Source of the DNA: CAVSKL01 sp963728475 [NCBI: Candidatus Eiseniibacteriota bacterium]
Lineage (GTDB): Bacteria; Eisenbacteria; RBG-16-71-46; JABDJR01
Assembly (NCBI GenBank): GCA_963728475.1
Contig: CAVSKL010000003.1
Coordinates: forward strand, 620,001 to 684,000
Direction: 5' to 3'
DNA: 64,000 nt
Shown: piece by piece, positions 23,466-61,530 of the stretch
Position numbering within the stretch: position 1 is the stretch's first letter
Layout: each line of letters starts with the position of its first letter
The notes under the pieces: model-generated
The model's database searches: none
Told to the model about the DNA's origin: nothing
The model's input: only the letters and a program-made list of their open reading frames with translations
Position numbers and translations under genes: made by a program

Positions 23466-24836
23466 CTACCCGAGCCCCTCGATCAGGTCCCGGTCCAGAT
23501 CCTCGAACGTCTTCAGGTGCTCCACCCGCTCGCGCCGGAGCCGCTGCACCAGCCGCTCGTACTCGTCGAGCCGGTCCTGGGACTGGTAGAGCCGGCGCGG
23601 ACGGAGGATCGCCTCGTCCTCGCCCTCGATCCCCGGGACCGATTCCGCGACCTCGTACCCGAAGTCGGGATCGTGGGTCCAGTGGATGGTCCCTTCCGCG
23701 ATCGCCTTCACGATGGCGCCGGTGTGGGGGATGCGGATCTTGCGGGACCGTTCGTCGTCCTCGCCGCCCCCCACCCGGCCGGTATTGAGAAGGTAGACCA
23801 CCAGGTCCGATCCGGCCAAGAGCCCCTTCATCCGGTTCCCCTGCTGGGCGTGGCGGAGGGGGAAGAAGGGGTTGGTGCCGGGCACCCGCAGGGACTTCCC
23901 GGCCTCCTCCTTTCCGCCGGCGCTGGTCCCCTGGGTCTCGCCGAGCATGAAGAAGGCGGCGGCCTGGGCCCCGTGGAGCCGGGCCGCCGCAGGGATGATG
24001 TTCTCGTTCCGGTTCAGGATGAGGAGGATGTCGGCCCGGCCCAGGTCGCGGGCGTCGGCGGCCCCCTTCACCCTGGACATGGGGAAAGTGGCGCGTCCGT
24101 TCCCGGTGTAGGAGGTGTCGAAGAAATCGACCTCGCCGGCATCGTCCTGGGAGACGGTGGTGCCGGAGAGGCCGATGATGAGCGCCACCTTGCCGTCCTC
24201 CCCCACCGGGATCACCTTGCACCCAGCGTGGAGCGCCAGCCCGCCCCGGTCGTAGACGATCTTGTTCCACATCCGGAGCCCGCCCTTCTTGGACTCCCCG
24301 AAGTAGTCGGAGTTGAGCACGCGGGTGATCCCGCTCTCCAGGTCCACTGCGATCACCCGGTCGTCGGGATAGCCGGGGGCGGTCAGGTTGGGGGTGTAGA
24401 TCACAGTGAGCCGGGGCTCGAAGTCCTCGTCCATGACCGACGGGTCCTCGGTGTAGTAGAGCTGGCGCTGCATGGCCGCGATGTTCGCGTTCCGCGATTC
24501 GACGATGAGCCTGGCCGGCACCCGGAAGGTGCGGTCGTTGCCGATGAAGCCGTTCACCACCACCATCTCCCGCTCGGCGATGTAGGCGTCCCGGCGGCGG
24601 GCGATCTCCCCGAAGTCCGCCCGGGACATGGTCTGGTCGGAGTGCTCGCGGGGCCGGTCGGTGGCGATGTAGGTGCTTCCCTTGCTCCGGGCGGTGACCC
24701 GGGTGCGCACGTTCAGGTTTCCGAACCGGGTGGGGCGCGCGTTGGCCATGCGCTCGACCAGTTCGCGGAGCTCGCCGGCAGAGGGGTTCAGCACGACGCT
24801 GCGGGGACGGACGGGAAGATGGATGACGCTTTTCAT
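23466..24836 (-). CDS. PEP-carboxykinase (ATP)-like protein with deleted P-loop residues
   Basis: 456 residues. The family is shown by 'YFGESKKGGLRMWNKIVYDR' (compare the GEMKKG region of ATP-PEPCK), by 'RIPHTGAIVKAIAEGTI', and by a C-terminal 'VYLLNTGRVGGGE'. Where active enzymes have GLSGTGKTTLS, this protein has 'GLSGTTVSQDD' (residues 222-232): the Gly-Lys pair is gone, and the following metal-binding DDEHGW segment is not recognisable. It is likely not an ordinary ATP-PEPCK. A canonical GTP-PEPCK is encoded elsewhere in the window. GAGGAGC precedes the ATG. Function unknown. Confidence 0.8.
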   Translation of the reverse strand: MKSVIHLPVRPRSVVLNPSAGELRELVERMANARPTRFGNLNVRTRVTARSKGSTYIATDRPREHSDQTMSRADFGEIARRRDAYIAEREMVVVNGFIGNDRTFRVPARLIVESRNANIAAMQRQLYYTEDPSVMDEDFEPRLTVIYTPNLTAPGYPDDRVIAVDLESGITRVLNSDYFGESKKGGLRMWNKIVYDRGGLALHAGCKVIPVGEDGKVALIIGLSGTTVSQDDAGEVDFFDTSYTGNGRATFPMSRVKGAADARDLGRADILLILNRNENIIPAAARLHGAQAAAFFMLGETQGTSAGGKEEAGKSLRVPGTNPFFPLRHAQQGNRMKGLLAGSDLVVYLLNTGRVGGGEDDERSRKIRIPHTGAIVKAIAEGTIHWTHDPDFGYEVAESVPGIEGEDEAILRPRRLYQSQDRLDEYERLVQRLRRERVEHLKTFEDLDRDLIEGLG

Positions 24837-40191: not shown

Positions 40192-40207
40192 TATCTGAAC
40201 CGGCGCC

Positions 40208-40418
40208 GGAGCCGCGGTGTCCTGCTGCGCCGGGGGCGGACGGCTCAGGCGCGCCGGCGCCGGAGCCACAGTGTCCTGCTGCGCCGGATCCGGAGCCGCG
40301 GTGTCCCGCCGCGCCGGGGGCGGACGGCTCAGGCGCGCCGGCGCCGGAGCCACAGTGTCCTGCTGCGCCGGATCCGGAGCCGCGGTGTCCCGCCGCGCCG
40401 GGGGCGGACGGCTCAGGC
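40208..40418. repeat. 84-bp composite tandem repeat, about 2.5 copies
   Basis: GGAGCCGCGGTGTCC begins at 40208, 40292 and 40376, an exact 84-base period. Each unit is made of a 54-base part (with GGGGGCGGACGGCTCAGGCG) and a 30-base part (GGAGCCACAGTGTCCTGCTG). 84 is divisible by three, so frames stay open through it. Confidence 0.85.
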
Positions 40419-42466: not shown

Positions 42467-42830
42467 TCGATCGGAGGCGTGCTCGGGTGGAATGGCGGAG
42501 GGGTCGCCGGCTCCGGGCTCGGAATCCGGAGCGCCGCTTCTCCGTTCGCGTCATCCGCGGGCGGGGCGGGGTGCGCCCCGGCCGGCCCGTTCCCTCGGGG
42601 CGGCGGCGAAGGGGAGGTGGGCCGGCCGCGCATCGGCGGCGCTCCCCGGCATCCGGCGCTCCCGGCATCCGGCGCTCCAGCGTCCGGCGCTCCCCGGCAT
42701 CCGGCGCTCCAGCGTCCGGCGCTCCGGCATCCGGCACCTCCGGCGCTCCCGGCATCCGGCACCTCCGGCGCTCCCGGCATCCGGCGCGGCCGCGCTCGAC
42801 CGCGAGCGGGTCTGGTATTCCAACGGGCGC
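42467..42830. other. 364-base gene-free stretch between the HNH and E1 genes
   Basis: The left part has no recognisable feature. The right part, about 42640-42797, is an irregular array of 15-18 base units built on GGCATCCGGCGCTCC and CAGCGTCCGGCGCTCC (roughly nine copies). No terminator with a T run is seen for either convergent gene. Confidence 0.7.
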
Positions 42831-44939
42831 CTAGTACCCGGCCAGTTCCCTGAGGTCGGCCGCGATGCGCTCGGCGCTGGGGAGGATGACCTCTTCCAGG
42901 TTCGGGGCGTAGGCCACGGGGACGTCCATCCCCGCGTGCCGTCGGACCGGTGCGTCGAGGTATTCGAACAGGTTCTCGCCGATCCAGGCCGCGATCTCGG
43001 CTCCGTAGCCCCAGGTGCGGTTGTCCTCGTAGGCCACCATCGCCTTGGCCGTCTTCTTCACGCTGGCGGAGACCGTCTCCTTGTCCCACGGCGAGAGCGA
43101 GCGGAGGTCGATCACCTCCACCGACAGGCCCTCCTTCTCCAGTTCCTTGGCCGCCATCTCGGCCCGGCGCACGATCGCCCCGTAGGTGACCACGGTCACG
43201 TCGGTCCCCTCGCGGGTTACCCGCGCCTTGCCGAACGGGATCATGTAGTCCGGCCCCGGCTTGGCCCCCTTGGCGTAGGGCTGGCGGTAGAGGTGCTTGT
43301 GCTCCAGGAACAGGACCGGGTCGTCGGAGCGGATCGCGGTGCGCAACAGGCCGTTCGCATCCAGCGCGTTGGACGGCATCACCACCCGGAGCCCGGGGCT
43401 GTGGGTGAACAGCACCTCGCCCGACTGGCTGTGGTAGACCGCGCCTCCCCCCAGGTAGCCCCCGATCGGCACCCGGATCACCACCGGGCACTTCCAGTGG
43501 CCGCCGCTCCGCCACCGCATCATCGCCAATTCGTTTCTAATCTGGTGGAACGCGGGCCAGATGTAGTCGAAGAACTGGATCTCCACCACCGGCTTGATCC
43601 CCCGGGTGGCCATCCCGATCGCCCGGCCCACGATGTTGGCCTCGGCGAGAGGGGAGTTGAACACCCGGTCCGACCCGAAGCGGCGCTGAAGCCCCGAGGT
43701 CGCCTTGAACACCCCGCCCTTCCCCTTCACCACCGGCAACGCCTCTTCCTTGGTGGCGTCGGCCACGTCCTCTCCGAACACCACGATCCGGGGATCGCGC
43801 TCCAGCTCGTCGTGGAGGCAGAGATTGATCAGCTCCACCACCGAGACCTCGTCCCCGCCCGGTTCGGGGTCGGTGTCGAACTCCGGGGAGGTGGGATCCA
43901 CCTCCTCGGAGTAGAGGTGCGCCTGGACCGAACCCGGCGCCGGCTTTCCGGCCTCGGTGGCGGTGTCGACCGCCGCCGAGATCTGCTCGTCGACCGCGGC
44001 GTGCAAAGCATCCAGCTTGGCCTTGGTCAGCACCCCGTCGTCCAGGAGCATCTTCTGGAACCTCACGATGCAGTCCCGCGCCTCCTCCTCGGCCAGCTCC
44101 TCAGGGGTCCGGTAAGCGCGATGGTCGTCCGACATGGAGTGGCTGTAGGGACGGGTGACGTGGGCATGGGCCAGGGCGGGACCCTTCCGCTCGCGGCAGT
44201 GGGAGATCAGGCGATCCAGGGCCCGGTATGACTCCACCGGATCGGTGCCGTCGAATTCCTCGATCAGGAGCCCCTCGAATCCGGAGAGCGCCTTGCTGAT
44301 GCTGCCGCCCGGCGTCTGGACCCCGACTGGTACGCTGATCGCGTAACCGTTGTCCTCAACCATGAACAGCACCGGGAGCCGGTTCACGCAGGCGGCGGAG
44401 GCCGCCTCCCAGAACTCGCCTTCGCTGGTGGCGCCGTCCCCGATCGACACGTAGACCACCTCGTCCTCCTGGAAGCGGGGCTTGCCGGGGAGGTCGGGAT
44501 GGCGGGCGAAGAAGAGGCCCGCCTCGGCGCAGCCCACCGCCTGCAGGCACTGGGTGCCGGTCGGACTCGACTGGGAGACGATGTTGTACTTGGCGTGACC
44601 CCAGTGGCTGGGCATCTGGCGGCCCGCGCTGGCCGGGTCGTCGACCGCCCCCACCCCTTCCAGGAGCATCTCCCGGGGAGAGACGCCCAGCTCCAGGCAC
44701 AGCGCCCGGTCGCGGTAGTACGGGTAGAACCAGTCGTAGCCGGGGCGGAGCAGCATCCCGGCGGCGGTGAGCGCGGCCTCGTGGCCGGCCCCGCTGATCT
44801 GGAAATAGTACTGGTTCCGCCGCTTCAGCCGGATTTCGGCGTCGTCCATGCGCCGGGACAGGACCATGTTCCGGTAGATCCCGATCAACTGGTCCTGATC
44901 CAGGGCGCGTTCGCCGGACTTCTGATCTCTCACGGCCAT
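42831..44939 (-). CDS. Fused alpha-beta E1 component of a 2-oxoacid dehydrogenase complex
   Basis: 702 residues. The first ~340 are the alpha subunit: thiamine motif '[15 protein letters not shown]' to 'VEDNGYAIS', and the phosphorylation-loop region '[14 protein letters not shown]'. From about 380 the beta subunit follows ('[12 protein letters not shown]', '[15 protein letters not shown]', '[16 protein letters not shown]'). Such fusions decarboxylate branched-chain 2-oxoacids or pyruvate and pass the acyl group to a lipoyl E2. No E2 or E3 gene is nearby. The start at 44939 is preferred; a longer frame to 45077 would overlap the likely promoter. Confidence 0.92.
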
Positions 44940-45075
44940 GACGCTTGAATCTCCTGCTCTGAGTCGATGAATCGAAGGCGAGACGGCGCTGCCGCGGCCG
45001 GCTGCCGGCGCGAGGACGGCGCATGCATGACAAGCGGGCGGGGCGGGAGGCCGCGGCTCCCGGTAAGCCCGATCC

Positions 45076-45105
45076 ATTCTACTAGATTCCCCGGTCCCAA
45101 GCCAA
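45076..45105 (-). promoter_or_regulatory. Promoter for the E1 gene
   Basis: Minus strand reads TTGGCT (45105-45100), 18-base spacer, TAGAAT (45081-45076). The leader to ATG 44939 would be about 130 bases. Confidence 0.45.
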
Positions 45106-45216
45106 CCGGTTGCGCGCGTTGACGGTACGGCATCCCACCAAGGTCCCGGGCCCCGGATCGGGGGGGGAATCGAGGTCGGAGCCGCGAGACCGGGGGCTGG
45201 GGGCCGTGTCGGCGGG

Positions 45217-45312
45217 GCTGAGGCGGAACTGAGGTGGAACTGAGGCGGAGCCGAGGCGGAACTGAGGAACTGAGGCGGAGCCGGGGCGGAGCCGGGCCGG
45301 AACCGGGGTGGA
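45217..45312. repeat. Short degenerate tandem repeat GAGGCGGA(A/G)C(T/C)
   Basis: Seven or so copies of an 11-12 base unit in tandem, with later copies drifting to GGGGCGGAGCC. Confidence 0.75.
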
Positions 45313-45488
45313 GCGGAGCCCGAGTCGGAGCCCCCCGCCGGGGTCCCGATTCCCGGCCGGGAAAACGGTTGGCTTGCCCGCGGCTTCCGGTTACCCTAGG
45401 CCCCGTCTTTTTGGCCGGGTGGCCGGGTGGCCGGTCGGCGCCTCGCGCCCGCGCTGGCTTCGGCCTTGTACCTCCTATCGAGGGCACG

Positions 45489-46721
45489 ATGGAGTCAAAA
45501 CCGATCTCGTCCCCCGTCCCCGAGGCGGCGGCACACGCTGACATCTTCCGCAAGGCCTACACGTTCACGCGGGCTCGTGAGGTCAAGGAAGCGGGCTTCT
45601 ACCCGTACTTCATTCCCATCAGCGCGTCCGCCGCCAATGAAGTGACGGTGGACGGCCACCGGCTGGTGATGGCCGGCTCCAACAACTACCTGGGGTACAC
45701 CCACGACCCGCGGGTGATGGAGGCGGCGGCCCAGGCCGCCCGCAAGTACGGCACCGGCTGCACCGGGAGCCGTTTCCTGAACGGCACCCTGGATATCCAC
45801 GAGAAGCTCGAGGCGGACCTCGCCGAGTTCAACCACAAGGAAGCGTCCCTGGTGTTCAGCACCGGCTTCCAGACCAACCTCGGCACCATCTCCAGCCTGG
45901 TCGGACGCGACGACGTGGTGGTCACCGACAAGCTCGACCACGCCAGCATCGTGGACGGTTGCCGGCTCTCCTTCGGCGAGACCCGCCGTTTCCGCCACAA
46001 CGACATGAAGGACCTGGAAGCGGTCCTGAGCGCCATCGATTCCCGCCGGGGACGGATGGTGGTGGTGGACGGCGTGTTCTCCATGGAGGGGGACCTCGCC
46101 CCGCTCCCCGAGCTGGTTGCCGCCTGCCGCCGCCACGGGGCCCGGCTCCTGGTGGACGAGGCCCACGCGGTCGGGGTGATGGGCAGGTCCGGGATCGGGT
46201 CCGCCGAGGAGAAGGGCGTCCTCGACGAGGTTGACCTCCTGGTCGGCACCTTCTCGAAGTCGTTCGCCTCCATCGGCGGCTACGTGGCCGGCGAGGAGGC
46301 GGTGATCAACTACATGAAGCACCACGCCCGGAGCCTCATCTTCAGCGCCAGCATGCCCCCCTACGCGGTGGCCACGGTGCAGAAGTGTCTCGAGCTCATG
46401 AGACAGGAGCCGGAACGGCGGGACCGGGTGAAGGAGATCGGCCGGCGCATGCGGGACGAATTCCGCCGCATGGGTTTCGACACCGGCGACTCCGAGACTC
46501 CCATCGTGCCGGTGGTGATCGGGGCGATGGAACGCACCTTCATGTTCTGGAAACGGCTCTATGAGGAGGGCGTCTTCACCAACCCCGTGGTCGCGCCCGC
46601 GGTTCCCGAGTCTTCGAGCCGCATCCGCACCTCCTACATGGCGACCCACACCGACGAGAACCTGGAGACGATCCTCGCCGCCTTCAAGAAGGTGGGTCGG
46701 GAGCTGGGCATCATCTCCTAG
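45489..46721 (+). CDS. spt: Serine palmitoyltransferase-like alpha-oxoamine synthase
   Basis: 410 residues. 'MAGSNNYLGYTHDPRVMEAA', 'KYGTGCTGSRFLNGTLDIHE', 'LVDEAHAVGVMG' and the PLP lysine Lys257 in 'GTFSKSFASIGGY' define the alpha-oxoamine synthase family. The N-terminal 'EVKEAGFYPYFIPIS' is characteristic of the bacterial serine palmitoyltransferase branch rather than BioF or Kbl. It would condense serine with a fatty acyl thioester to 3-ketosphinganine in the cytoplasm. The following three genes fit ceramide formation and head-group attachment, which strengthens the call. A role as a different acyl-CoA:amino-acid synthase remains possible. Confidence 0.85.
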   Translation: MESKPISSPVPEAAAHADIFRKAYTFTRAREVKEAGFYPYFIPISASAANEVTVDGHRLVMAGSNNYLGYTHDPRVMEAAAQAARKYGTGCTGSRFLNGTLDIHEKLEADLAEFNHKEASLVFSTGFQTNLGTISSLVGRDDVVVTDKLDHASIVDGCRLSFGETRRFRHNDMKDLEAVLSAIDSRRGRMVVVDGVFSMEGDLAPLPELVAACRRHGARLLVDEAHAVGVMGRSGIGSAEEKGVLDEVDLLVGTFSKSFASIGGYVAGEEAVINYMKHHARSLIFSASMPPYAVATVQKCLELMRQEPERRDRVKEIGRRMRDEFRRMGFDTGDSETPIVPVVIGAMERTFMFWKRLYEEGVFTNPVVAPAVPESSSRIRTSYMATHTDENLETILAAFKKVGRELGIIS

Positions 46722-46783
46722 GGATCCGCCGGGCCGCCGGCCCCGGCTCCCGGGGGGATCTTCCGGCGTGGCGGCGGGTTCAG

Positions 46784-46789
46784 TACTTT
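46784..46789 (+). promoter_or_regulatory. TACTTT -10-like box before the ceramide synthase candidate
   Basis: TACTTT with TTCCGG 17 bases upstream (46761-46766). Weak match; the 85-base gap after spt leaves room for an internal promoter. Confidence 0.25.
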
Positions 46790-46806
46790 AGCCGGAGTCA
46801 GGACAC

Positions 46807-47934
46807 ATGCCGCTCACCGTGGAGCCGGTCCGGACCGGCAAGGACGTGCACGCTTTCGTCGTCTACCCGTGGTCGTTGTACCGCGATGATCCTCACTGGA
46901 TCCCCCCCCTCATCGGCGACGTGAAGGCGCTTCTCGACCCCGGCAAGAACCCTTTCTTCGAGCACGGCGAGATGCAGGCCTACCTTGCCCGGCGGGACGG
47001 GCGGATCGTAGGCCGGATCGCCGCCGTCCGGAACCGCGCCCACGAGGAATTTCAGCAGGAGGCGGTGGGATTCTTCGGTTTCTACGAGTCCGAGAACGAG
47101 CCCGCGGTGGCCTCGGCGCTCCTGGACGCCGCCCGGGGATGGCTGCGGGAACGCGGGCTCCCGGTCATGCGCGGCCCCGCCAACCCCACCTCCAACGACG
47201 AGTACGGAATGCTGGTCCAGGGTTTCGATACCCCGCCCATGGTGATGATGCCGCACGCCCGGCCGTACTACGACGCGCTCATGACCGGCGCGGGCCTGGA
47301 GAAGGAAAAGGACCTCCTCGCCTACATCTACGAGGACTCGGCGCGGGCCGTCCCCGAACGCCTGGAGCGGGGGGCGGCGCTGGCCGAGAAGCGGAATCCC
47401 GGGGTCGTCGTGCGGCCGCTCGAGAAGAAGCACTTCGACCGGGACGTGGGCGCGTTCCGCACGGTGTACAACCAGGCCTGGGAGCGGAACTGGGGCTTCG
47501 TCCCCATGACCGCCCACGAGATCGACCACATGGCCAAGCAGCTGAAACCGGTGGTGGACCCGGGCCTGGTCCTGATCGCGGAGAAGAACGGGCAACCGGT
47601 GGGGTTCGCCCTGGGGCTGCCCGACCTCAACCAGGCCATGAAGAAGGCCAACGGCCGGCTTTTTCCCCTGGGGCTGGTCAAGGTGCTGCTGGCGGCGCGG
47701 AATCTGGACCGGGCGCGGATCCTGGTCCTGGGGGTGATCAAGGAGTACCGGAAGACCGGGATCGACGTCCTCCTCTACCGCGACCTCTTCCGTTACGGGT
47801 TGAAGAAGGGGTACCGGGTGGGGGAGTTCTCCTGGATCCTGGAGGACAACATGGCCATCCGGACCCCCCTCGAGAATTTCGGGGCGCGGGTGTACAAGGT
47901 CTACCGGGTGTATCACGGGCCGACCGGGAAGTAG
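46807..47934 (+). CDS. GNAT-fold acyltransferase, bacterial ceramide synthase candidate (bCerS-like)
   Basis: 375 residues, no signal peptide. The start 'FVVYPWSLYRDDPHWIPPL' and the central 'RGPANPTSNDEYGMLVQGFD' are typical of a large GNAT-like family widely found beside bacterial spt genes; the C-terminal half holds 'NWGFVPMTAHEIDHMAKQL' and 'FSWILEDNMAIR'. In Caulobacter a protein of this general type acylates the sphingoid base (bCerS). Here it follows spt by 85 bases and precedes an epimerase-type reductase by 16, so acylation of 3-ketosphinganine or sphinganine is the best inference. Substrate and activity are untested. Confidence 0.72.
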   Translation: MPLTVEPVRTGKDVHAFVVYPWSLYRDDPHWIPPLIGDVKALLDPGKNPFFEHGEMQAYLARRDGRIVGRIAAVRNRAHEEFQQEAVGFFGFYESENEPAVASALLDAARGWLRERGLPVMRGPANPTSNDEYGMLVQGFDTPPMVMMPHARPYYDALMTGAGLEKEKDLLAYIYEDSARAVPERLERGAALAEKRNPGVVVRPLEKKHFDRDVGAFRTVYNQAWERNWGFVPMTAHEIDHMAKQLKPVVDPGLVLIAEKNGQPVGFALGLPDLNQAMKKANGRLFPLGLVKVLLAARNLDRARILVLGVIKEYRKTGIDVLLYRDLFRYGLKKGYRVGEFSWILEDNMAIRTPLENFGARVYKVYRVYHGPTGK

Positions 47935-47950
47935 GCGGGCGCGGAGCGAC

Positions 47951-48934
47951 ATGGCCAGGGCGCTGGTAACGGGGGCCAACGGGTTCGTGGGGAGCCATCT
48001 CGCGGAGCTCCTGCTCGAGCGGGGGTGGGAGGTTCGCTGCCTGGCCCGCAAGTCCTCACCGGTGCGCTGGCTGCCCCGTTCCGGGGTGGAGATCGCCTGG
48101 GGCGAGGTCACCGATCCCGGAAGCCTCCCCGCCGCGCTCCGGAACGTGGACGTGGTGTTCCACCTGGCCGGGGTCGTGCGCGCGCCCGACGAGGCCGCCT
48201 ACCTCCGCGTCAACGCGCAAGGGACCCGGAACCTGGCCCGCGCGGCGGCGGCGGCGGAGACCCCTCCCCGGCGGATCCTCTTGATGAGCAGCCTGGCCGC
48301 GGTGGGGCCGACCACCCGCGATCATCCCCGCCGCGAGGACGATCCCCCCGATCCGCAGGGCGGCTACGGCCGGAGCAAGCTCCGGGCGGAAGCGGCCCTG
48401 GCCGAGGCGGCGGGGGGCGTGCCCTGGACGGTGGTGCGCCCCGGCGCGGTCTACGGGCCCCGCGACGACGCGTTCCTTCTCCTCGCCAAGCTGGTCCGGC
48501 GCGGATGGTTTCCGCAGGTCGGCCGGGAGCCGCAGCCGGTGCAGATCGTCCATGTCCGCGATGCGGCCGAGGGCTCGCTGGCCGCGGCGGAGTCGCCGCG
48601 TTCGGTGGGCCGGGTCTACCATCTCGCCCATCCCGAGCCCGCCACCTGGGAGTCGCTGGGCCGGATCATGGCCGCGCGGCTCGGCCGGCCGGTGCGCCGC
48701 CTCCCCGTCCCGCGGTGGGCGGTGGGCTTGCTCGCCCGCGGCTCGAGCCTGCTTTCGAGCGCCACCGGGCGGGCCAACCATCTTCCCGGGGACCGGCTGC
48801 GGGGGCTCCTGGTTCCGGCCTGGACCTGCGACGTTTCGCGGCTCCGGGAGGAGGTCGGCTTCACCGCCGGGATCGACGCCGGGGCCGGGGTGCCGGCCAC
48901 GGTGGACTGGTATCGCGAGGTGGGCTGGCTATGA
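47951..48934 (+). CDS. NAD-dependent epimerase/dehydratase family reductase, ceramide reductase candidate (CerR-like)
   Basis: 327 residues. The extended-SDR cofactor motif is 'VTGANGFVGSHL' (Gly8, Gly11, Gly14), and 'YGRSK' supplies Tyr139 and Lys143. 'VDVVFHLAGVVRAPDE' and 'VVRPGAVYGPRDDAF' are family-typical. In Caulobacter and Bacteroides an enzyme of this family reduces the 3-keto group during ceramide synthesis; location between the acyltransferase and the PAP2 gene supports the same job. It shares an ATGA overlap with the next gene. A sugar or steroid substrate cannot be excluded by sequence alone. Confidence 0.75.
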   Translation: MARALVTGANGFVGSHLAELLLERGWEVRCLARKSSPVRWLPRSGVEIAWGEVTDPGSLPAALRNVDVVFHLAGVVRAPDEAAYLRVNAQGTRNLARAAAAAETPPRRILLMSSLAAVGPTTRDHPRREDDPPDPQGGYGRSKLRAEAALAEAAGGVPWTVVRPGAVYGPRDDAFLLLAKLVRRGWFPQVGREPQPVQIVHVRDAAEGSLAAAESPRSVGRVYHLAHPEPATWESLGRIMAARLGRPVRRLPVPRWAVGLLARGSSLLSSATGRANHLPGDRLRGLLVPAWTCDVSRLREEVGFTAGIDAGAGVPATVDWYREVGWL

Positions 48935-49899
48935 GGCGCGGCGAGCGGGGAAGGGGGAAGCCCGCCGAAAAACCTCCGGCCGCGACGGGCGGGATCGCGA
49001 ACCCCACCGCCTTCCGACCGGTGGATCTCTACACCCTCGCGTACCTAGCCTTCGGCCTGGCGCTCCTCCTCCTCTTCCCCGGCCGCGTGCCCCATCCCTA
49101 CCGGCTGGCCGCCTACCATGCCGCGGGAATGGCCGCGCTGATCGCCGCGCGGCGCCTCGGGCTGGGACGCGCCCGGCTCGGGACGATCCTCCTCGACTTC
49201 TATCCCCTTCCCCTGTTCGCGGCCCTCTACACCGAGGTCGCGGTCCTGAACCGGCTCCTGCACCGGGGGGTCTTCCTGGACGCCGGCATCCAGCGGGTGG
49301 AGGCGTTCCTGTTCCGGAGCCAGCCCGCCCGCGACCTTCACCTCATGGTCCCCTGGCGGCCGCTCGGCGAGTACCTGCACCTGGGTTACTTTTCCTATTA
49401 CTTCCTTCTCCCCGGACTCGCCTTTACCCTCTGGTTCCGCCGCTCCCGGGAGGCGTACCACACCGCGGTGGCCTGCGTGGGCCTGGCTTTCTACGTCTGC
49501 TTCGGGTTCTTCATCGCCATGCCGGTGGCCGGACCGTATTACGCGTTCCTTCACAGCGACCCCGACAAGGTGGGGTATCTCCTCCCTCACCTGGTGCGGT
49601 GGCTCCTGAGCCGGGGCTCCTCGATCGGGGCGGCCTTCCCCTCCAGCCACGTGGCGGTGTCGGTGACGATCTGGATCATGGCCATGCGCTACCACCGGCG
49701 GTTGGCGACGGTCTACGCGTTCCTGGTGCCGGCGCTGGCCCTGGGCGCGATCTACGGCGGGTATCACTACGCCACCGACGTCACCGCCGGGGCGATCCTG
49801 GCGGTGCTGGTGGGGACCTTGGGGCACCGCGCCACCCTCGCGCTCTACCGGCGCGCGGCCACCGGCTCCGGGTTGAGCGCGGCCCGCCGAGGGAGTTGA
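48931..49899 (+). CDS. PAP2-superfamily membrane phosphatase/phosphotransferase, possible phosphoceramide synthase
   Basis: 322 residues, about six membrane helices after a charged N-terminus. Motif C2 is 'GAAFPSSHVAVSV' (His240) and motif C3 'GGYHYATDVTAG' (His279, Asp283), the catalytic pair of the PAP2_3 group that includes inositol-phosphorylceramide synthases. The overlap with the reductase gene and the cluster order suggest it adds or removes a phospho-head-group on ceramide at the membrane. It could equally be a general lipid phosphatase. The last codons and stop lie in a 23-bp repeat. Confidence 0.8.
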   Translation: MRRGERGRGKPAEKPPAATGGIANPTAFRPVDLYTLAYLAFGLALLLLFPGRVPHPYRLAAYHAAGMAALIAARRLGLGRARLGTILLDFYPLPLFAALYTEVAVLNRLLHRGVFLDAGIQRVEAFLFRSQPARDLHLMVPWRPLGEYLHLGYFSYYFLLPGLAFTLWFRRSREAYHTAVACVGLAFYVCFGFFIAMPVAGPYYAFLHSDPDKVGYLLPHLVRWLLSRGSSIGAAFPSSHVAVSVTIWIMAMRYHRRLATVYAFLVPALALGAIYGGYHYATDVTAGAILAVLVGTLGHRATLALYRRAATGSGLSAARRGS

Positions 49900-49934
49900 G
49901 GGAGGTCCGCCGAGGGAGTTGAGCGCGGCCCGCC
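49875..49934. repeat. 23-bp tandem repeat spanning the PAP2 stop codon
   Basis: Units begin at 49875, 49898 and 49921 (GAGCGCGGCCCGCCGAGGGA plus GTT, with one changed part in the second). The stop TGA (49897-49899) sits at the junction of units and is recreated at the next one. Confidence 0.8.
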
Positions 49935-49975
49935 GGCCGATTCCCGCGGCGGGCGCGCGGCGAGCCCGGCCCGGT

Positions 49976-51409
49976 TCAGCCCCCGGAGACGACCAGGAGC
50001 CTCGCCGCCTCGGCCTCCAGCTTCTCGGAATCCACCTGCTCGGCGGAGTAGCGAATGAGAAGCCGGTCCTGATTGCGTTCGAAGGCCACGTCCTCCACCC
50101 CACGGATGCGCAACAGGTGCTTGACCAGGACCCTGCGAACGTCGGCCGAGGCCCCGTGGGTGGAAAGTTCGAGCACGGTCAGCTCTTCCGGGTCCTCGAA
50201 GCGGGTGGCGATGATGACCCAGACGAGCGACGAGCCGGCGAGGATCCAGTAGAGGGCCTCGACGTTCCGCTCCAGGAAGATCCCGGAGATGAGCCCGCCC
50301 ACGAACGCGCCGCTGAACTGGCTCATGTTGAAGATGCCGGCGGCGGTTCCCCGGTTGGCCTGCTGGCAGGTCCTGGTCAACAACGCGGGGAACAGCGGTT
50401 CCAGAAGGGCGAAAGCGATGATGAAGAGGAAGAGCCCGAGCACCAGCGCCGCCGTCCCCACCCCGGGCTCGTGGACGCTGGCAGGAACGGTGAGCGCGAT
50501 CACCGCCAGGGCCGCGGCCAGGAGCGCCTTGCCGGCCAGCGCCACCCTCTTGCCGGTCCCGGCGCGCTGGCCGAAGCGGGGGCCCAGGAGCATGACCGAG
50601 AACCCCACGGTGAGAAGCGGCAGGAAGAGCCGCCACTGGTGGCCGGGGGGGATGAAGTCGTTGAGGAGGAAGGGGACGGTCACGAAGAGGGCGGTGAGCG
50701 CCATGTGGAGGTTGAACGCTCCGGCGTCCAGCCGCAGGAGCTGCCGGTTGGTCAGCACCTCGAACAGGTGCTCCCCGGAGTACTCCAGCTCGTCGTGATG
50801 GGAGATCCGGGGCGGATCGGGCACCTTCCACCAGAGCCAGGGCACCGCGGCCACGGTGAGTCCGGCGGTGACCCAGAAGAGCGCCGGCACCCCCAACGTC
50901 TCGGCGGCGGACGGCCCGGCCAGGAGCCCCACCGCGAAGGAGCCGCCGATCGAGATCCCCACCATGGCCATGGCCCGGGTCCGGACCTGGTCCCGGGTCA
51001 GGTCGGCGAGCATGGCCACCACCACCGAGGCGATGGCCCCCATGCCCTGGATCAGGCGCCCGGCCACCATGACCAGCGCGCTGTCGGCCTGGGCGCAGAC
51101 CACCGAGCCCAGGGCAAAGAGGAGGAGCCCGACGGTGAGGACCGGTTTCCGCCCCCACCGGTCGCTCCAGGTTCCGAAGGGGACCTGGAACACGGTCTGG
51201 GTGAGGCCGTAGACCCCCACCGACAACCCGACCAGGAGCGAGGTGCTTCCGGCCAGACCCTTCACGTAGGGGGTCAATACCGGCAGCACCAGGTAGAAGC
51301 CGAGCATGCGTAGGGTGAGGAGGGCGGTCAACCCGCCCACCACCTCCCGTTCCCCCGGGGTGAAAGCCATTGGATCGATCCGGGGGGACCGGGGTTCGGA
51401 ACCATTCAT
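49976..51409 (-). CDS. MFS transporter with C-terminal ferredoxin-like domain (YajR-like)
   Basis: 477 residues from ATG 51409, chosen because TAACCT ends eight bases before it. Twelve membrane helices; motif A reads 'FGTWSDRWGRKPVL' between helices 2 and 3. The last ~60 residues ('VRRVLVKHLLRIRGVEDVAF', 'LLIRYSAEQVDSEKLEAE') form a ferredoxin-like domain, as in E. coli YajR. The transported compound is unknown. It converges on the PAP2 gene and diverges from sufS. Confidence 0.9.
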   Translation of the reverse strand: MNGSEPRSPRIDPMAFTPGEREVVGGLTALLTLRMLGFYLVLPVLTPYVKGLAGSTSLLVGLSVGVYGLTQTVFQVPFGTWSDRWGRKPVLTVGLLLFALGSVVCAQADSALVMVAGRLIQGMGAIASVVVAMLADLTRDQVRTRAMAMVGISIGGSFAVGLLAGPSAAETLGVPALFWVTAGLTVAAVPWLWWKVPDPPRISHHDELEYSGEHLFEVLTNRQLLRLDAGAFNLHMALTALFVTVPFLLNDFIPPGHQWRLFLPLLTVGFSVMLLGPRFGQRAGTGKRVALAGKALLAAALAVIALTVPASVHEPGVGTAALVLGLFLFIIAFALLEPLFPALLTRTCQQANRGTAAGIFNMSQFSGAFVGGLISGIFLERNVEALYWILAGSSLVWVIIATRFEDPEELTVLELSTHGASADVRRVLVKHLLRIRGVEDVAFERNQDRLLIRYSAEQVDSEKLEAEAARLLVVSGG

Positions 51410-52817: not shown

Positions 52818-52860
52818 GCCGGCCCTCGAGCGCCGCGCATCCCACCCGGGGGCCCGGGGC

Positions 52861-52993
52861 GGTCACGCCCGGTCCAGCGCGCTCCCACCCGGTTGGTCGC
52901 GCCCTGTCCGGCGGGCGGTCACGCCCGGTCCAGCGCGCTCCTACCCGGTTGGTCACGCCCTGTCCGGCGGGCGGTCACGCCCGGTCCAGCGCC
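52861..52993. repeat. 56-bp tandem repeat extending from the DUF302 gene's 3' end
   Basis: GGTCACGCCCGGTCCAGCG begins at 52861, 52917 and 52973, exact 56-base spacing. The last copy contains the stop codon and final codons of the DUF302 gene (TCA at 52975-52977). Confidence 0.85.
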
Positions 52994-59784: not shown

Positions 59785-61530
59785 ATGAACGCCGATCTGG
59801 AACAATGGGTTGCGGAGTGTGAACGCCTGGCCGGGCCCGATCGGGTGGTGTGGCTCGACGGCTCCCGGGAGGAGCACGAGCGTCTGATGGCGCAGGCGGT
59901 GGAAGAGAAGGTCTTCCACCCCATGAACCCGAAGACCTTTCCGAACTGCTTCCTGCACCGGAGCGATCCCACCGACGTCGCCCGCACCGAGAGCCTCACC
60001 TTCATCTGCAGCCGGAAGAAGGAGGACGCCGGCCCCACCAACAACTGGATGTCGCCGGCCGAGGCCAAGGACAAGGCGCGGCCGCTCTACCAGGGCTGCA
60101 TGAAGGGCCGGACCATGTACGTGATCCCCTACGTGATGGGCCCGCTGGGCTCACCCATCAGCAAGGTGGGGATCGAGCTCACCGACAGCCTCTACGTGGT
60201 GGAGAGCATGCGGATCATGACCCGGATGGGGAAGGCCGCCCTGGAACAGCTCGGCGATTCCACCGACTACTGCAAGGGCTTCCACTCCATGGGCGACCTC
60301 TCGCCCGAGCACCGGCTCATCCTGCACTTCCCCGAAGAGCGGCTCATCTGGTCGATCGGCTCGGGCTACGGCGGGAACGCGCTCCTGGGCAAGAAGTGCT
60401 ACGCGCTCCGCATCGCCAGCGTGATGGCCCGCGACCAGGGCTGGTTCGCCGAGCACATGCTGATCTCCGGGGTGCAGAGCCCCGACGGCGAGATCAAGTA
60501 CGTCGCCGCCGCCTTCCCCAGCGCCTGCGGGAAGACCAACCTGGCCATGCTGGTGCCGCCGGAGTCCATGCCCGGATGGAAGATCTGGACGGTGGGGGAC
60601 GACATCGCCTGGATGAAGTTCGGCCCCGACGGCCGGCTCTGGGCCATCAATCCCGAGAACGGGTTCTTCGGGGTGGCGCCGGGGACCAGCATGAAGACCA
60701 ACCCCAACGCCATGAAGACCATGCAGCGGAACTCCTTCTTCACCAACGTGGGGTTGACCGCCGACGGCGAGCCGTGGTGGGAGGGGATCGGCTATCCGGC
60801 GCCGGAGGAAGGGCTCATCGACTGGCTGGGGCGGCCGTGGAAGCCGGGGAGCCCGGACAAGGCCGCTCATCCCAACTCCCGCTTCACCGCCCCCGCGGGA
60901 CAGTGCCCGTCCATCTCGGACCGGTGGGAGGCTCCGGAGGGAGTGCCGATCTCGGCCATCATCTTCGGCGGCCGCCGGGCCCGGGTGGCGCCGCTCGTCT
61001 ACCAGTCCTTCGACTGGGACCACGGCGTGTTCGTGGGGGCGAGCGCGGCCTCGGAGACCACCGCCGCCGCCACCGGCAAGGTGGGCGTGGTGCGCCGCGA
61101 CCCGATGGCCATGCTTCCCTTCTGCGGCTACAACATGGCCGATTACTGGGGCCACTGGTTCGAGATGGGCACCAAGAGCGGGAAGATGCCGAAGATCTTC
61201 CACGTGAACTGGTTCCGCACCGGGGAAAACGGCGAGTTCCTGTGGCCGGGCTTTGGCGAGAACGTCCGCGTGCTCAAGTGGATCCTCGAGCGCACCGCGG
61301 GGAAGGGAGGGGCGGTGGAGACCCCCATCGGCCACGTGCCCACCCCCGGCTCGCTCGACATGCAGGGGCTGAACGTTCCCGCGGCGACCATGGAGTCGCT
61401 CCTCTCGGTGGACCGGGCGGAGTGGAAGGAGGAACTCACCGGCATGCGCGAGTTCTTCGCCCGCTTCGGGGACGCGCTCCCCGCCCGGATGTCGAAGCAG
61501 GTGGACGAGCTCGAGAAGCGGCTGGGCTAA
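59785..61530 (+). CDS. pckG: Phosphoenolpyruvate carboxykinase (GTP)
   Basis: 581 residues, close to the family's ~600. The P-loop with its reactive cysteine is 'AAFPSACGKTNLAMLVPP'; 'VGDDIAWMKFGPDG' supplies the metal-binding acids, and 'GFFGVAPGTS' and 'MLPFCGYNMADYW' are family hallmarks. It converts oxaloacetate and GTP to PEP, the gluconeogenic exit from the TCA cycle. This intact enzyme contrasts with the altered ATP-type homologue at 23466. Confidence 0.97.
   Translation: MNADLEQWVAECERLAGPDRVVWLDGSREEHERLMAQAVEEKVFHPMNPKTFPNCFLHRSDPTDVARTESLTFICSRKKEDAGPTNNWMSPAEAKDKARPLYQGCMKGRTMYVIPYVMGPLGSPISKVGIELTDSLYVVESMRIMTRMGKAALEQLGDSTDYCKGFHSMGDLSPEHRLILHFPEERLIWSIGSGYGGNALLGKKCYALRIASVMARDQGWFAEHMLISGVQSPDGEIKYVAAAFPSACGKTNLAMLVPPESMPGWKIWTVGDDIAWMKFGPDGRLWAINPENGFFGVAPGTSMKTNPNAMKTMQRNSFFTNVGLTADGEPWWEGIGYPAPEEGLIDWLGRPWKPGSPDKAAHPNSRFTAPAGQCPSISDRWEAPEGVPISAIIFGGRRARVAPLVYQSFDWDHGVFVGASAASETTAAATGKVGVVRRDPMAMLPFCGYNMADYWGHWFEMGTKSGKMPKIFHVNWFRTGENGEFLWPGFGENVRVLKWILERTAGKGGAVETPIGHVPTPGSLDMQGLNVPAATMESLLSVDRAEWKEELTGMREFFARFGDALPARMSKQVDELEKRLG

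What the first reader, a model, noticed from the sequence alone, without database searches (positions are those of the whole stretch)
45489..49899. Compact candidate sphingolipid (ceramide) gene cluster in a probable candidate-phylum bacterium
Four co-directional genes, the last three tightly packed, encode an SPT-type alpha-oxoamine synthase (Lys257), a large GNAT-like protein of the type seen as bacterial ceramide synthase, an extended-SDR reductase, and a PAP2_3-type membrane enzyme (His240, His279, Asp283). Order and spacing (85, 16, overlap) match a full route: serine plus acyl thioester, N-acylation, keto reduction, head-group phosphotransfer. The first three correspond to Spt, bCerS and CerR defined in Caulobacter. 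The added PAP2 gene, if an inositol- or other phosphoceramide synthase, would complete a phosphosphingolipid pathway in one operon-like block. The assignments of bCerS, CerR and PAP2 functions are inference.
Basis: partly seen in the sequence, partly recalled or inferred. Interest (0 to 1): 0.85.

Follow-up and report, generated by a model that had tools for sequence, protein, structure and literature searches.

The report
Four-gene bacterial sphingolipid-making operon
An uncultured bacterium carries four neighbouring genes that very probably make ceramide and then attach a phosphate-linked head group to it, and the same block is common in another bacterial phylum, Gemmatimonadota.

Summary
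In detail: four co-directional genes at 45489-49899 with the stated residues and spacing. The pathway reading holds for the first three. The SPT groups with Sphingobacterium SPT and Caulobacter Spt (100/99) apart from BioF, Kbl and HemA. The GNAT protein is a full-length homologue (38-40%) of the GNAT encoded near spt and cerR in Caulobacter. The SDR falls in one clade with Caulobacter CerR (SH-aLRT 97). The block is not a one-off: SPT-GNAT-SDR-PAP2 recurs in 24 of 40 Gemmatimonadota loci read and in 3 of 32 loci from another phylum; 8 of 8 Cloacimonadota loci keep GNAT-PAP2 as a pair. The PAP2 profile and AlphaFold model match Aur1 (inositol phosphorylceramide synthase) best, nearly over the whole chain, with the His-His-Asp triad aligned, so the fourth gene is most likely a phosphosphingolipid synthase. 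The head group is open: three genomes with the full block lack myo-inositol-phosphate synthase, which argues against inositol as the general answer. The three-gene core is known; its repeated union with an Aur1-like gene was not found in the open-access papers searched. Nothing was tested biochemically.

The parts
45489..46721 (+). spt: serine palmitoyltransferase-type alpha-oxoamine synthase, 410 aa; Lys257 (PLP), with His151, Asp223, His226 and Arg380 aligned to identical residues of the SPT in PDB 3a2b (roles of the residues recalled)
46807..47934 (+). bcerS: GNAT-fold N-acyltransferase of the bacterial ceramide synthase family, 375 aa
47951..48934 (+). cerR: extended SDR (oxidised-ceramide or 3-ketosphinganine reductase), 327 aa
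48931..49899 (+). Aur1-like PAP2_3 membrane protein, probable phosphosphingolipid synthase, 322 aa; H240, H279, D283 align with Aur1 H255, H294, D298; start may be 49021

Best explanation
A four-gene operon for phosphosphingolipid synthesis. Spt condenses serine with an acyl thioester to 3-ketosphinganine; bCerS adds the amide-linked acyl chain; CerR reduces the ketone; the Aur1-like PAP2 enzyme then moves a phospho-head group from a glycerophospholipid to ceramide by a His-His-Asp mechanism, releasing diacylglycerol. The family assignments of the first three are shown by phylogeny, homology and synteny; their reactions are carried over from studied relatives. The PAP2 step is inferred from fold, catalytic residues and conserved gene linkage. 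That the four genes are one transcript is inferred from spacing. The head group is unknown.
For: SPT: best NCBIfam model is serine palmitoyltransferase (512.8 bits; bioF 402.8); best PDB match SPT 3a2b/8guh, 403 bits, against 231 for cysteate acyltransferase 28eh; grouped with that SPT and Caulobacter Spt at 100/99, apart from BioF, Kbl and HemA. GNAT: 50-51% to five Gemmatimonadota MAGs, 38-40% to Caulobacterales, over nearly the full length. SDR: one clade with Caulobacter CerR, SH-aLRT 97. Same-strand SPT-GNAT-SDR-PAP2: 24 of 40 Gemmatimonadota loci, 3 of 32 loci from the phylum of G003, 5 of 80 first-scan loci, plus the window; GNAT-PAP2 in 8 of 8 Cloacimonadota loci. PAP2: profile best hit Aur1 9vj3, E 1.3e-7, next non-Aur1 YodM 1.8e-4; model pLDDT 83.2, pTM 0.84; the two Aur1 entries are the only Foldseek hits at E<=0.001; Z 19.5 over 261 residues against 16.0 over 162 for LpxE; H240/H279/D283 fall on Aur1 H255/H294/D298.
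Against: The SPT does not reach a curated SPT cut-off (512.8 of 640), nor does the SDR any model's; the GNAT matches no NCBIfam model; the PAP2 scores 19.7 against 480 for the phosphoinositol dihydroceramide synthase model. SMSr, a ceramide phosphotransferase, ranks low in the fold list (Z 11.3), so fold rank alone does not prove phosphotransfer. No relative of the Caulobacter carrier protein was found in the window's frames by a single-sequence search, which may miss a distant one. The CerR clade was tested against 11 outgroup SDRs with a quick tree; the nearest named model, HpnA (131 bits, cut-off 367.65), was not in the tree. Many relatives of the GNAT lie alone: 48 of 80, 17 of 32 and 6 of 40 loci show no SPT, SDR or PAP2 within 4.5 kb, some because contigs end or, as in Caulobacter, spt is further off. 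The window's own genome is not held.
Confidence: 0.8

Rival explanations
1. The first three genes make ceramide, but the PAP2 protein is a lipid phosphatase (for example clearing phosphatidic acid or ceramide-1-phosphate), so the end product is free or otherwise decorated ceramide.
For: The PAP2 superfamily is mostly phosphatases (recalled); LpxE, YodM and PgpB are also structural matches. The PAP2 gene is not fixed: 14 of 40 Gemmatimonadota loci lack it on the same strand as the GNAT, 10 of them having none of this type within 4.5 kb.
Against: Aur1 matches over 254-261 residues, the phosphatases over about 160-190. The phosphatase C3 arginine and C1 KX6RP motif (motifs recalled) are missing from the block's PAP2s, while a second PAP2 on the opposite strand in several Gemmatimonadota loci has the C3 arginine and forms a separate group at 99.
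Confidence: 0.2
2. The PAP2 protein is an inositol phosphorylceramide synthase in the strict sense, so the product is inositol phosphoceramide.
For: Closest solved relative is Aur1. Myo-inositol-phosphate synthase is in 138 of 150 Gemmatimonadota and in 39 of the 40 whose loci I read; the one without it, G188, also has no PAP2 in its block. In L002 two CDP-alcohol phosphatidyltransferases on the opposite strand lie within 4 kb of the block; the best NCBIfam model of both is archaetidylinositol phosphate synthase, below cut-off (61.1 and 52.6 of 180). Similar genes lie beside L189, L194, L195, L196.
Against: The synthase is near universal in Gemmatimonadota, so its presence says little. G038, G065 and G122, which carry the full block, have none (0 of 3; the block of G122 is on a 4.52 Mb contig), and only 3 of 8 Cloacimonadota with GNAT-PAP2 have it. 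No CDP-alcohol transferase motif (motif recalled) in the window. Uptake of inositol is not excluded.
Confidence: 0.25
3. The SPT uses another amino acid (cysteate, alanine, glycine), so the block makes sulfonolipids or 1-deoxyceramides.
For: Family members differ in amino-acid substrate (recalled); 1-deoxyceramides are reported from the Black Sea (PMC11334938, passages read).
Against: SPT 3a2b 403 bits against cysteate acyltransferase 28eh 231 bits. No cysteate acyltransferase was put in the tree, and alanine or glycine use was not testable.
Confidence: 0.1

Closest known systems
Caulobacter spt / bcerS (cerS, CC_1154) / cerR (CC_1164)
   Same: Same three protein families; the window proteins are 41%, 39% and 33% identical to those of the C. 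vibrioides OR37 locus L076.
   Different: In L076 the GNAT gene lies about 6 kb from spt, and an ACP and an acyl-ACP synthetase take part in C. crescentus (PMC11324152, passages). In the window the GNAT gene sits between spt and cerR, and no relative of the carrier protein was found.
Aur1, inositol phosphorylceramide synthase of yeast
   Same: Fold over 261 residues, Z 19.5; catalytic His-His-Asp aligned.
   Different: 16-17% identity over the structural alignment; a Kei1-like partner was not looked for; head group unknown.
Bacteroides BT_1522 PI-dihydroceramide synthase and its cluster
   Same: Aur1-related enzyme acting on dihydroceramide (PMC9246714, passages read).
   Different: Only 19.7 bits against a cut-off of 480 for the matching NCBIfam model; BT_1522 sits with inositol genes, here the gene sits with spt, bcerS and cerR.

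Membership tests
Serine palmitoyltransferase | Branches with known SPTs, not with BioF, Kbl or HemA | tested here: met
   100/99 split, 39 rows; BioF and HemA rows have long branches
Serine palmitoyltransferase | PLP lysine and other active-site residues of SPT 3a2b conserved | tested here: met
   H151, D223, H226, K257, R380 aligned with identical residues; their roles are recalled
Serine palmitoyltransferase | Reaches an NCBIfam equivalog cut-off | tested here: not met
   512.8 of 640, 417.4 of 500, 327.4 of 670 for the three SPT models; these models carry clade names (CFB, BetaP, AlphaP)
Bacterial ceramide synthase (bCerS) | Full-length homology to the GNAT gene of the Caulobacter sphingolipid locus | tested here: met
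   38-40% to Caulobacter and other Caulobacterales; compared with OR37 and others, not with CC_1154 itself
Bacterial ceramide synthase (bCerS) | Genomes with the gene also carry SPT | tested here: met
   Of 19 genomes picked whose locus showed no adjacent SPT, 15 have one elsewhere (SPT profile over 520 bits); not so G009, G023, G003 and the 1.4 Mb G328, which shows a 126-aa piece at 48%
Bacterial ceramide synthase (bCerS) | N-acylates a long-chain base | not testable with these tools
   needs an assay
CerR | Same clade as Caulobacter CerR, apart from other extended SDRs | tested here: met
   35-row clade, SH-aLRT 97, against 6 E. coli and 5 other SDRs, quick tree; HpnA not included
CerR | Periplasmic location | not tested
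   no localisation test made
Aur1-type phosphosphingolipid synthase | Aur1 fold with aligned His-His-Asp | tested here: met
Inositol phosphorylceramide synthase | Inositol supply in the genomes that carry it | tested here: inconclusive
   MIPS in 138 of 150 Gemmatimonadota, absent in G038, G065, G122; window's genome not held
Inositol phosphorylceramide synthase (NF052609) | Reaches the curated cut-off | tested here: not met
   19.7 of 480 bits; 0 of 23 genomes over cut-off, 6 of 23 with weak matches

The most novel reading that the evidence does not exclude
A long-kept four-gene operon in Gemmatimonadota and other phyla holds a complete bacterial route from serine to a phosphosphingolipid, ending in a new Aur1-like bacterial enzyme family whose head group is not inositol in at least some lineages (for example ethanolamine).
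Probability: 0.4. Interest if true: 0.65.

Novelty: new variant of a known kind. Interest (0 to 1): 0.5.

Why it matters
It gives a four-gene test set for bacterial phosphosphingolipid synthesis and predicts sphingolipids in many Gemmatimonadota. It points to an Aur1-like enzyme in bacteria outside Bacteroides. [quoted passage not shown] for bCerS the loci seen here speak for rearrangement.

Tried and rejected
BioF, Kbl or HemA identity for the first gene: rejected by the tree. Sulfonolipid enzyme: less likely by PDB scores. Inositol as general head group: weakened by missing MIPS in three block-carrying genomes; the MIPS test within Gemmatimonadota was uninformative because 138 of 150 genomes have it. 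The NF052609 search of 23 genomes and 14 control genomes gave nothing over cut-off, so no Bacteroides reference sequence came from it.

Placing the window: its GTP-type PEPCK matched in 6 of 25 genomes, five over nearly full length at 58-61% (two deltaproteobacteria among them, one Desulfobacteraceae, one Calditrichaeota, one unnamed bacterium) and G003 in two pieces; none of the six Gemmatimonadota among the 25 had it. The ferredoxin-oxidoreductase-type protein matched in 19 of 42 genomes, best a Zixiibacteriota (59%), a deltaproteobacterium (56%) and two Gemmatimonadota (56%, and 57% over half). No phylum could be fixed. No tRNA and no Rfam family at gathering score in the window. Promoter and terminator scans of 44900-50200 found nothing on the + strand. 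SMSr and human LPP1 rank below Aur1, but a low rank does not exclude kinship.

Papers: passages read in PMC11334938, PMC11087976, PMC9246714, PMC11324152; for all others only the search listing. The founding Caulobacter paper (10.1038/s41589-021-00948-7) is not held. Absence in print rests on searches of an open-access library only.

Full report
What is there. The fused E1 dehydrogenase gene upstream and the MFS gene downstream lie on the other strand, so the block stands alone.

SPT. The best NCBIfam model is serine palmitoyltransferase SerpalmtaseCFB (512.8 bits; cut-off 640 not reached), ahead of bioF at 402.8. The best PDB match is SPT 3a2b/8guh (from Sphingobacterium, recalled). In a 39-row tree of chosen sequences the window protein groups with that SPT and Caulobacter Spt at 100/99, apart from E. 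coli BioF and Kbl and from bioF-, kbl- and hemA-type paralogues of some of the same genomes. The BioF and HemA rows have long branches, and within the SPT side the window's place is unresolved.

GNAT. It matches only Acetyltransf_1 in Pfam and nothing in NCBIfam. A scan of genome contigs gave 121 confirmed relatives, 80 kept. Several Caulobacter loci hold a 39-40% relative about 6-7 kb from spt, with cerR just beyond, in line with the gene order published for C. crescentus. Of 19 genomes picked because the locus showed no adjacent SPT, 15 carry an SPT elsewhere; in the seven Nitrosomonadaceae a CerR-type SDR lies beside it.

SDR. In a quick 47-row tree it sits in a 35-row clade with Caulobacter CerR and the other block SDRs (SH-aLRT 97), outside E. 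coli GalE, RfaD, RfbB, RfbD, Fcl and Gmd and five other SDRs. Deep forks among the outgroups are weak, and HpnA, the closest named model, also best for Caulobacter CerR (67 bits), was not included.

PAP2. The profile of 18 PAP2s of this type matches Aur1 best (E 1.3e-7), then YodM (1.8e-4). The AlphaFold model (pLDDT 83.2, pTM 0.84) finds the two Aur1 entries as its only Foldseek hits at E<=0.001, with Z 19.5 and 19.4 over 261 and 254 residues; the next, LpxE, has 16.0 over 162, SMSr 11.3 over 201. The catalytic columns coincide with Aur1 H255, H294 and D298. The C3 arginine and C1 motif of PAP2 phosphatases (recalled) are missing here, but the arginine is present in a separate PAP2 upstream of spt in several Gemmatimonadota loci, which forms its own group at 99.

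Distribution. GNAT hits at E<=0.001: 84 of 150 Gemmatimonadota genomes and 43 of 149 from the phylum of G003; the weakest hits in both lists may be other GNATs. I read 40 loci of the 84 Gemmatimonadota genomes, chosen by me among hits at E<=3.2e-66: 24 have SPT-GNAT-SDR-PAP2 on one strand within 4.5 kb, one SDR-SPT-GNAT-PAP2, one GNAT-SDR-PAP2 near a contig end, 3 SPT-GNAT-SDR, and 11 others, of which 6 GNAT alone and 4 with the PAP2 on the other strand. Of 32 loci from the phylum of G003 (32 of its 43 genomes with a hit), 3 have the full order, 17 GNAT alone. Of the first 80 loci 5 have the full order and 48 GNAT alone, Caulobacter among these because spt lies beyond 4.5 kb; all 8 Cloacimonadota loci have GNAT-PAP2 (in L008 the GNAT frame is broken in two), with SPT elsewhere in 7 of 8 genomes.

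Head group. Myo-inositol-phosphate synthase (PF01658) is in 138 of 150 Gemmatimonadota, in 39 of the 40 whose loci I read, in 20 of 31 GNAT-bearing genomes from the phylum of G003 and in 3 of 8 Cloacimonadota; it is missing from G038, G065 and G122, which carry the whole block. So inositol is possible in Gemmatimonadota but is not a general answer. Inositol taken up from outside, and gaps in incomplete genomes, are not excluded.

Compared with print. The three-gene core is known (PMC11087976, PMC11324152, passages read), and Spt-like genes are reported in 38 Black Sea phyla (PMC11334938, passages read). The main text of PMC11334938 has no word beginning with PAP2, inositol or Gemmatimonad. Bacteroides BT_1522 is the known bacterial Aur1 relative (PMC9246714, passages). 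No paper found joins an Aur1-like gene to spt-bcerS-cerR (searches; open-access library only). [quoted passage not shown] the blocks here are an exception, as far as gene order can show it.

Noticed in passing
L007-L011, L014, L015, L055: Cloacimonadota keep a bCerS relative directly followed by the Aur1-like PAP2 gene, away from SPT; a published survey saw no bCerS near SPT in this phylum and suggested rearrangement or replacement.
   Followed up: partly
L002:13019-16996 (and beside L189, L194, L195, L196): Two CDP-alcohol phosphatidyltransferases, with a flippase-like protein and a Gfo/Idh oxidoreductase between them in L002, converge on the block in some Gemmatimonadota.
   Followed up: partly
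L001, L002, L005, L006, L186, L188, L194-L196, L200, upstream of spt: A second PAP2 protein, of phosphatase type, on the opposite strand.
   Followed up: partly
23466-24794 and 59845-61530: Both an ATP-type PEPCK-like protein (partial model match) and a GTP-type PEPCK in one window.
   Followed up: no
40206-40418, 42637-42787, 45211-45314, 52857-52992: G+C-rich tandem repeats, one of them just upstream of spt.
   Followed up: no
42831-45077: A 748-aa fused dehydrogenase E1 alpha-beta gene, divergent from spt.
   Followed up: no
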